Part shown: one piece after another, positions 53,261 to 56,361 of the stretch
Position numbering within the stretch: the stretch's first letter is position 1
How the letters are laid out: every line of letters begins with the position of its first letter
Assembly: GCA_950054485.1 (NCBI GenBank)
Contig: CATLPD010000001.1
Location: 310,001 to 374,000, forward strand
Length of the DNA stretch: 64,000 bases
Direction: 5' to 3'
From: an uncultured Alphaproteobacteria bacterium
GTDB taxonomy: Bacteria > Pseudomonadota > Alphaproteobacteria > Micavibrionales > CSBR16-224
Translations under genes and position numbers: made by a program
The notes under the pieces: model-generated
What the model was told of the DNA's origin: nothing
The model's input: only the letters and a program-made list of their open reading frames with translations
Databases searched by the model: none

Positions 53261-53929
53261 CTATTCTTTATCTTTGCCCTTATCGTCATCCTTTTTCTTT
53301 TTGGATGTTTTTTTGGCCGGCTTTTTCGCAGAAGGTTTCTTATCGGACGATTTCTTGGATGTTTTTTTCGAAGACTTCTTTTTATCTTCTTTTTCATCAT
53401 CCTCGTCGTTATCGCCTTTTTTCGGCATTTTCTTCTTTTTGGATTTTTTCGAGTCCTGATTATCCTGCCTGAATTGATCCAGCGATATCACCTCGCCTGT
53501 GCTGCCTTCATCCCCGTCATCGACATCCAGTTCATCATCACCGTAATCGATGTCTTCATCTTCTTCGGACAGGGGTTGGAATTGCAGCGCAAAATTAACA
53601 GACGGATCTGTGAAAATCGTGATCGCCGTCAGCGGAATTTGTAGGCGTTCGGGCACGTTATTGAATTTCAGCATAACCGTAAAGCGCTTGTCATTTACCT
53701 CCAGATCATAAAACTGGTGCTGCAATACGATTGTCATTTCACCGGGATAGCGTTCACGCAGGTAATCTGGAATTTCAACGCCGGCATGATCCGTGCGAAA
53801 TGTAATATAGAAGTGATGGTCATCGAACAGGCCTTTTTCTATAACCTCTTCCAAGGCCGATTTCACAACCCCCCTGAGGGCAGCTTCCACCATCTTGTCA
53901 TAGCGATAGGATTCTAGGTCTTCGGCCAT
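53261..53929 (-). CDS. sspB: SspB-family ClpXP adaptor with Lys-rich C-terminal tail
   Basis: YDKMVEAALRGVVKSALEEVIEKGLFDDHHFYITFRTDHAGVEIPDYLRERYPGEMTIVLQHQFYDLEV. Confidence 0.93.
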   Translation of the reverse strand: MAEDLESYRYDKMVEAALRGVVKSALEEVIEKGLFDDHHFYITFRTDHAGVEIPDYLRERYPGEMTIVLQHQFYDLEVNDKRFTVMLKFNNVPERLQIPLTAITIFTDPSVNFALQFQPLSEEDEDIDYGDDELDVDDGDEGSTGEVISLDQFRQDNQDSKKSKKKKMPKKGDNDEDDEKEDKKKSSKKTSKKSSDKKPSAKKPAKKTSKKKKDDDKGKDKE

Positions 53930-54090: not shown

Positions 54091-55588
54091 ATGAAAATCC
54101 GTTTTTCTGCCAAATCGTCGGCCACACGCGACGCCGTTGTTGTCACGACATTAAATGATGCCAAACTTCTGGCCACAGCCAAAAAAATCGATGACAAAAC
54201 AGCCGGCGCCCTGACCCGCGCTGTAAAGGCGACCGGATTTACGGGGAAATTCTACGAAAATGTGCATATTCCCGGCCCCGCCAATGAAAACGCCAAACAT
54301 GTTTTTGTTAAGGGCCTCGGCACCAAGGGCGATATGCACCCGCTGGATGCCGAAAATATCGGCCGCAGCCTGACTGATATTTTTAACGAACACAGCGCGC
54401 ATAGAATTGATGTCGAACTGGAGGCGCACAGCCCCGCTGAAACAGCCGCCAATATGGCCTTTGGCGCGATGCTGAACAGCTACAGCTTTGATGTCTATAA
54501 ATCAGATGCCAAGGCCGGCGATACACGTGAAATAAACTTCGTAGTCGACGACCCTGCCGCCGCGCGCAAAGCCTTTGAAAAACTGCAAAAAATTGCCGGC
54601 GGTGAAAAGCTGGCGCGCGATCTGGGCCAGACCCCGCCAAATGATCTTTATCCCGAAAGCTTTGCAGAAAAGATTAAAAACGAATTCGCAAATTCGAATG
54701 TCAAAGTCCGCGTTCTCGATGAAAAGGAAATGGCAAAACTGGGCATGGGCTCGATGCTGGCTGTGGGGCAGGGCTCAATCCGCCCGCCACGTCTGGTGGT
54801 CATGGAATATATGGGCGGCGCAAAAGATGCCAGCCCGCTGGCTTTTGGTCGGTAAAGGAATTACATTCGATTCAGGCGGGCTTTCGATTAAATCGAATGG
54901 CGGTCTGGGCATGAAATACGATATGTCGGGTGCCGGATCTGTCGTCGGCGCAATGAAGGCGATATCGGACCGCGGGGCCAAAACAAATGTTGTCGCAGTT
55001 GTGGCACTGGCGGAAAATATGCCGTCTGACCGGTCATACCGCCCGGATGATGTTGTCAAATCCATGTCAGGCAAAACGATTGAAATCATTAATACCGATG
55101 CCGAAGGGCGCTTGGTCTTGAACGATGCATTGACGTACGTACAACGTTTTTACAAACCTGATACGGTGATCAACCTTGCCACCCTGACGGGCGCAATTTT
55201 TGCTGCACTGGGGGATGAATATGCGGGATTGTTTTCAAATGACGATGATCTGACGCAAGATCTGTTATTGGCCGGTATGCGTACAGACCAAAAGCTGTGG
55301 AATATGCCTGTTGGCGGGTCCTTCAAAAACAGCCTATCCTCACCGATTGCCGATCTGAAACACACGGGTGGACGCCCCGGGGCGTCAGTTGCCGCGACAT
55401 TCTTGCAGCAATTTATTGAGGATGGTGTCAAATGGGCGCATCTGGATATCGCGGGCGTATCAAATAAATTCGGTATGTCGACAGGTTATGGTGTACGTCT
55501 GCTGGATAATTACGTTGCAGAGACCCGTGAAAGCCTGCATGCGCAGATTAAAAAACACAAACGCCCTGCACCGAAAAGCGGGAAATAA
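54091..55588 (+). pseudogene. pepA: Leucyl aminopeptidase, interrupted by one frameshift near 54843-54846
   Basis: N-terminal half in frame 54091-54855; catalytic half (LVGKGITFDSGGLSIK, NTDAEGRLVLNDALTY) in the +1 frame to 55588. Confidence 0.9.
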
Positions 55589-55595
55589 AAATGGC

Positions 55596-55632
55596 CAAAA
55601 AAATGGGATCATCCTGTTGCTAGGCTGATCCC
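55596..55632 (-). terminator. Terminator of ssrA (minus strand)
   Basis: Minus strand GGGATCA-N14-TGATCCC followed by ATTTTTTT. Confidence 0.8.
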
Positions 55633-55955
55633 GAGCCCCACCTTAACAGAGTCTATCTGCTAAGGGATTAGAATTTATGAAAATTCAGCTATTATGCAAC
55701 AGCTTTCAATTCAAAAGACTCAACATTATCGTTGGCATCTATATAGTTTTTGAACCGATAACGGTGGTATCTCACCGAACGAAAGCCAATATCTTTACTG
55801 CGCACGTCGATCCTGTTTCGCCCCCGCCGCTGACCACGAAGAGAGTTTATCCTCAAGGTCGTGGCCAGTGGTGGAGGCGCCGGGTACTGCCCCCGGGTCC
55901 GTAGACGCCTATTCCATAGGGCGTTTATCGTCATAGTCAGAGATAATTCCCTGAC
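55633..55955 (-). ncRNA. ssrA: Circularly permuted two-piece tmRNA precursor (approximate ends)
   Basis: Minus strand: acceptor piece ...CGGACCCGGGGGCAGTACCCGGCGCCTCCACCA ending at 55869; hairpin intervening segment 55826-55868; coding piece from 55825 GGGGGCGAAACAGGATCGACG; tag ORF ANDNVESFELKAVA with TAATAG. Confidence 0.93.
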
Positions 55956-55961
55956 ACTATT

Positions 55962-55990
55962 AATATAGCCCGAAATGGTTAAAAAGTCGA
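55962..55990 (-). promoter_or_regulatory. Putative ssrA promoter TCGACT-17-TATATT
   Basis: -10 TATATT on minus strand at 55967-55962, 4/6 -35 match at 17-bp spacing. Confidence 0.5.
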
Positions 55991-55992
55991 GT

Positions 55993-56361
55993 CTAGCGCT
56001 TCAAAGGTTTCATATAGTCTAGGTTCTCGATGGCCGAAAGTAGTTTAGTATAATTGCGATAACTTCTATACTGATGTCTTATGGCCCTGAACGATATAAA
56101 ATCCAGGAATGGATCATATATCCACTCTTTGTTTCTATCTGACTTTTCATGCTTTTTGTACGCGTTAAACATTTTAGACAATTGTCCTTTTTGTAAGTCA
56201 TGCGTAGTACGCTCCAACAATTTTTTAATCGTTTCCAGTTGTTCCAGATCCTGAGCTGTTGGATTCTTTATATACAGTTTATCTAGTGGGTAATCTTTTT
56301 CAGCTATCTCAAGAGCAACTATAGCCAAACTAAACGCATCAGCATTTTTTGATATTTTCAT
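55993..56361 (-). CDS. Hypothetical protein
   Basis: 122-aa AT-rich ORF; TTGACATAA element upstream at 56415-56407. Confidence 0.55.
   Translation of the reverse strand: MKISKNADAFSLAIVALEIAEKDYPLDKLYIKNPTAQDLEQLETIKKLLERTTHDLQKGQLSKMFNAYKKHEKSDRNKEWIYDPFLDFISFRAIRHQYRSYRNYTKLLSAIENLDYMKPLKR

What the first reader, a model, noticed from the sequence alone, without database searches (positions are those of the whole stretch)
55633..55955. Circularly permuted two-piece tmRNA gene with an unusual degradation tag (ANDNVESFELKAVA)
Seen directly on the minus strand: a 3' acceptor segment (CGCCTCC-A-CCA ending at 55869) precedes a 43-nt intervening segment that folds on itself (CTGACCACGA / TCGTGGCCAG). 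This is followed by the tmRNA 5' signature GGGGGCGAAACAGGATCGACG from 55825. GGGGGCG pairs with CGCCTCC over 7 bp with one G-U. The tag GCC AAC GAT AAT GTT GAG TCT TTT GAA TTG AAA GCT GTT GCA TAA TAG (55736-55692 to the first stop) reads ANDNVESFELKAVA followed by two stops. Permuted ssrA is established for Alphaproteobacteria. The C-terminal KAVA differs from the usual (A)LAA/VAA end read by ClpX, so tag recognition may have shifted. ORF callers will miss this gene and may report the spurious 80-aa ORF 55692-55934.
Basis: partly seen in the sequence, partly recalled or inferred. Interest (0 to 1): 0.72.

Follow-up and report, generated by a model that had tools for sequence, protein, structure and literature searches.

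The report
Ordinary two-piece tmRNA, unusual tag end
This is a genuine alphaproteobacterial ribosome-rescue RNA gene of a well-known split kind; its degradation tag ends in -AVA instead of -AA, but close relatives end in -LVA and the known tag-binding residues of the protease are unchanged, so a changed recognition is unlikely.

Summary
The minus strand carries a single-copy, circularly permuted ssrA gene: RF01849 231 bits (E 1e-65), RF04321 126.6 bits, and ARAGORN reads the same tag, ANDNVESFELKAVA, followed by TAA TAG. The acceptor halves flank a 43-nt hairpin spacer and covary across 150 relatives, with a constant G3·U70 and encoded ACCA. SmpB, ClpX and ClpP are encoded elsewhere in the genome, and the ClpXP adaptor SspB lies 1.7 kb away in the window. 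"Permuted two-piece tmRNA" is therefore supported at sequence level; RNA processing was not tested.

"Tag recognition may have shifted" is not supported. In the window's family and its sister family, 16 of 24 tags end in -VA (15 -LVA, and this one -AVA), against 0 of 148 other tags read. The ssrA-contacting loops of ClpX are identical in 23 of 23 genomes with either ending. The synthetic -LVA tag is the fastest-degraded of three variants compared in Salmonella. The tag is a lineage variant of an ordinary degron.

More unusual, outside the window: tags in neighbouring families carry two AANDN motifs (78 of 79 in one family, 4 of 7 in another, 0 of 61 elsewhere in the class), possibly a doubled SspB dock.

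The parts
55962..55990 (-). Promoter-like site TCGACT-17-TATATT upstream of ssrA
   Evidence: 9 of 12 matches; consensus match only; the stretch is included in the RF01849 match
55869..55955 (-). Acceptor (tRNA-3'-half) RNA piece, ending CGCCTCC-ACCA; the 5' end near 55955 is inferred from the -10 box
   Evidence: predicted 87 nt, compared with the 82-nt piece of S. meliloti (PMC2245857)
55826..55868 (-). 43-nt intervening spacer, 10-bp hairpin, expected to be cut out
   Evidence: z -4.2; no shuffle folds as well
55602..55825 (-). Coding (mRNA-like) RNA piece starting GGGGGCGAAACAGGATCGACG
   Evidence: about 220 nt, compared with the 204-nt piece of S. meliloti (PMC2245857)
55692..55736 (-). 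Tag reading frame ANDNVESFELKAVA + TAA (a second stop, TAG, follows at 55691-55689)
55602..55635 (-). 3' hairpin GGGATCA...TGATCCC followed by a T-run; likely 3' end / terminator
   Evidence: z -4.7; not listed by the simple terminator scan
53261..53929 (-). sspB (SspB-alpha type), the ClpXP adaptor for tmRNA-tagged proteins; same strand as ssrA, 1.7 kb downstream of it
   Evidence: PF04386 6e-41; best PDB relatives 2qas, and 2qaz 'SspB Protein'

Best explanation
A functional, single-copy, circularly permuted ssrA gene. Its transcript is expected to be cut at the spacer into an acceptor piece (about 87 nt, ending in encoded CCA) and a coding piece (about 220 nt), held together by the 7-bp acceptor stem and neighbouring pairs. 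AlaRS charges it through the G3-U70 pair, SmpB brings it to stalled ribosomes, and the product receives A + ANDNVESFELKAVA. SspB is expected to dock on the AANDN start and ClpX to grip the -AVA end. The -VA end is a lineage variant that is probably still read by ClpXP. Shown here: gene anatomy, covariation, presence of the partner genes, phylogenetic spread of the tag ends. Inferred: processing, charging, tagging and degradation.
For: RF01849/RF04321 hits; ARAGORN; single copy; SmpB 177 bits, ClpX 661 bits, ClpP and SspB in the same genome; acceptor halves compensate across the spacer in relatives (CGGCTCC/GGGGCCG 67, CGCCTCC/GGGGGCG 36, CAGCTCC/GGGGCTG 23, CGACTCC/GGGGTCG 9, and others) with G-U at pair 3 and ACCA in 150 of 150; -VA ends in 16 of 24 genomes of the window's and sister families; ClpX loops GYVG, SITRDVSGEGVQQ and GGRKHPQQ identical in 23 genomes with -VA or -AA tags.
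Against: No RNA or degradation data. Mutating the last two alanines of the E. coli tag raises KM for ClpXP (PMC7652416), so -AVA could be read more weakly. -AVA itself is seen only in this genome; relatives carry -LVA.
Confidence: 0.95

Rival explanations
1. The tmRNA is functional but the -AVA tag is no longer an efficient ClpX degron; tagged proteins depend on SspB docking or are handled by another protease (Lon, FtsH, ClpAP).
For: The tag end differs from -AA, and the ultimate/penultimate alanines matter for KM in E. coli (PMC7652416); the -LVA tag is partly degraded without ClpXP in Salmonella (PMC11003136).
Against: ClpX contact loops unchanged; 15 relatives carry -LVA, which behaves as a strong degron in enterobacteria (PMC11003136); SspB retained.
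Confidence: 0.12
2. A decayed or pseudogenised ssrA copy, with the functional one elsewhere.
For: None beyond the unusual tag end.
Against: Only copy in a genome rated 99.99% complete; full-length 231-bit model match; intact compensated acceptor stem and spacer hairpin.
Confidence: 0.01
3. The 80-aa ORF 55692-55934 is a real protein gene and the RNA likeness is incidental.
For: The frame is open.
Against: It runs through the spacer and both tRNA halves; the constraint seen is RNA base pairing; E 1e-65 RNA model match.
Confidence: 0.005

Closest known systems
Alphaproteobacterial permuted (two-piece) tmRNA, Rfam RF01849 / RF04321; Caulobacter and Sinorhizobium ssrA
   Same: Full-length model match, permuted order, spacer, G3-U70, encoded CCA, ANDN tag start
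   Different: Tag ends -AVA, where every alphaproteobacterial tag read here outside the window's and sister families ends -AA; acceptor fifth pair is G-C where the sampled relatives in the window's own and sister families have C-G or A-U
Synthetic ssrA-LVA degron (AANDENYALVA)
   Same: Penultimate valine with terminal alanine
   Different: Here natural, with A rather than L at the third position from the end and a different middle; -LVA itself is natural in 15 relatives
SspB-alpha adaptor (PDB 2qas, 2qaz)
   Same: PF04386 domain; similarity over residues 8-145 of the window protein
   Different: The Lys-rich tail of the window protein (beyond about residue 156) is not aligned to any solved chain

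Membership tests
Permuted tmRNA (RF01849/RF04321) | Covariance-model match above the gathering score | tested here: met
   231 vs 50 and 126.6 vs 47 bits
Permuted tmRNA (RF01849/RF04321) | Acceptor half upstream of coding half, with spacer and 7-bp acceptor stem | tested here: met
Permuted tmRNA (RF01849/RF04321) | G3-U70 alanine identity pair and CCA end | tested here: met
Permuted tmRNA (RF01849/RF04321) | Tag reading frame with resume codon and stop | tested here: met
Permuted tmRNA (RF01849/RF04321) | SmpB partner in the genome | tested here: met
Permuted tmRNA (RF01849/RF04321) | Two mature RNA pieces in the cell | not testable with these tools
   needs Northern blot or RNA-seq
ClpXP ssrA degron | Small hydrophobic C-terminus read by conserved ClpX loops | tested here: inconclusive
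   Loops conserved; the end is -AVA instead of -AA; degradation not measured
SspB-dependent tagging | SspB-alpha adaptor encoded | tested here: met

The most novel reading that the evidence does not exclude
In this alphaproteobacterial order the tmRNA tag has been reshaped at both of its reading points: -AA replaced by -VA in two sister families, and the AANDN adaptor motif doubled in neighbouring families. This would imply an altered balance between ClpX and SspB recognition of rescued proteins.
Probability: 0.2. Interest if true: 0.5.

Novelty: new member of a known kind. Interest (0 to 1): 0.27.

Why it matters
It corrects annotation of a gene that protein-gene callers miss. It also shows that the -LVA ending made popular by reporter engineering exists as a natural tmRNA tag end in a bacterial lineage. 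The neighbouring families' double-AANDN tags offer a natural test of adaptor docking.

Tried and rejected
Recognition shift through ClpX change: rejected at the known contact loops, which are identical. Tag end unique to this genome: rejected for -VA, true only for the exact -AVA. A literature search for duplicated or long alphaproteobacterial tags found only the 2025 tmRNA database paper; the passages shown by the keyword look-up give 10 aa as the commonest tag length, and no double-AANDN tag appeared in them, but the whole paper was not read. A search for Micavibrio plus tmRNA gave nothing useful; the order was not named by any tool. My strict acceptor pattern first missed nearly all relatives in the order and was loosened.

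Full report
Observation. Rfam gives alpha_tmRNA (RF01849) at 55994-55602 with 231 bits, E 1e-65, over the whole model, and the newer merged model RF04321 at 55932-55692 with 126.6 bits. ARAGORN independently calls a permuted tmRNA with tag ANDNVESFELKAVA**. It is the only copy in a 2.28-Mb genome rated 99.99% complete. Two corrections: the hairpin arms were written in plus-strand orientation, and the gene is longer than 55633-55955, with a promoter-like TCGACT-17-TATATT at 55990-55962 and a 3' hairpin at about 55632-55605.

Structure. The 43-nt spacer folds with z = -4.2, and acceptor plus spacer with z = -7.9; no shuffle folds as well in either case. In 150 relatives where both halves could be cut out, the 7-nt arms change together across the spacer (CGGCTCC/GGGGCCG, CGCCTCC/GGGGGCG, CAGCTCC/GGGGCTG, CGACTCC/GGGGTCG, CACCTCC/GGGGGTG, CGTCTCC/GGGGACG); the third pair is G-U throughout these types, and ACCA is encoded in all 150. 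These relatives were picked with a pattern that already required part of the stem and the CCA, so the constant positions are partly by construction; the changing ones are not. A few of the 150 (about five) came out with mis-cut arms. The predicted pieces (about 87 and 220 nt) resemble the measured 82- and 204-nt pieces of S. meliloti tmRNA (PMC2245857).

Partners. The genome encodes SmpB, one clear ClpX and ClpP. The window itself encodes SspB at 53261-53929 on the same strand (PF04386 E 6e-41; best PDB relatives 2qas, and 2qaz named SspB Protein). In 61 of 80 named alphaproteobacterial sspB loci a tmRNA lies directly upstream of sspB on the same strand. The 80 are the best matches to the window protein, so this is not a random sample of the class. 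In the window, pepA lies between the two genes on the other strand.

Tag end. Of the tags that could be read, 16 of 24 in the window's family (f1) and a second family (f3) end in -VA, against 0 of 79 in f4, 0 of 7 in f7, 0 of 1 in f5 and 0 of 61 elsewhere in the class. By last three residues these are 15 -LVA and one -AVA, the window. A ClpX tree puts f1 and f3 together (99/97), and the VA/AA label needs at least 5 changes on it, so the end has probably switched more than once, though several forks are weakly supported. The window's ending ELKAVA is a variant of its relatives' ELRLVA and ELALVA.

Recognition. The E. coli ClpX residues shown to contact the tag or to affect its recognition (T199, V202, R228, H230; PMC7652416) lie in loops that are identical in all 23 relatives examined, whether their tags end -VA or -AA. 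In Salmonella the -LVA tag gave the strongest and fastest degradation of three variants (PMC11003136). That comparison did not include -LAA, and -AVA was not among the variants in the passages read. The mutation data in PMC7652416 say that changes at the last two alanines raise KM, so weaker binding stays possible. I conclude that a shift in recognition is not supported, not that it is excluded.

Outside the window. Tags in f4 (78 of 79) and f7 (4 of 7) carry a second NDN motif, mostly AANDN, usually 9 residues after the first; 0 of 61 tags elsewhere in the class do. ARAGORN shows the same in the two f2 genomes. The two copies' codons differ at wobble sites in 70 of 81 cases, which argues against a recent DNA duplication and for upkeep at the protein level. 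The second copy repeats the A-ANDN that the charged alanine plus the tag normally makes, so a doubled SspB dock is a natural guess; it is untested. The one paper found on tag lengths, the 2025 tmRNA database paper, was searched by keyword only; the passages shown do not mention such tags, and I do not know whether they have been described elsewhere.

Verdict. A sound annotation of an ordinary two-piece tmRNA, with a lineage-specific tag end; new member of a known kind, low to moderate interest.

Noticed in passing
L042, L008, L010, L015 and other f4/f7 loci: tmRNA tags with two in-frame AANDN motifs, for example ANDNFAFVAANDNSVVEGEGRIAA; 78 of 79 in one family, 4 of 7 in another, 0 of 61 elsewhere in the class. 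L034 (G003, window's family) has a possible decayed second copy, VAANGG.
   Followed up: partly
54091-55588 (+): pepA (leucyl aminopeptidase, M17) is split into two overlapping frames near 54846; a frameshift, by mutation or assembly error.
   Followed up: no
53261-53929 and 55602-55994: ssrA and sspB are neighbours on one strand, here and in 61 of 80 named alphaproteobacterial sspB loci: tag writer next to tag reader.
   Followed up: partly
55993-56361 (-): 122-aa ORF with no Pfam or NCBIfam match, ending at the ssrA promoter-like site.
   Followed up: no
G000:C1:505269-505769 and G000:C2:409738-411221 (whole genome, outside the window): Three ClpP-family matches in the window's genome, one strong and two weaker.
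   Followed up: no
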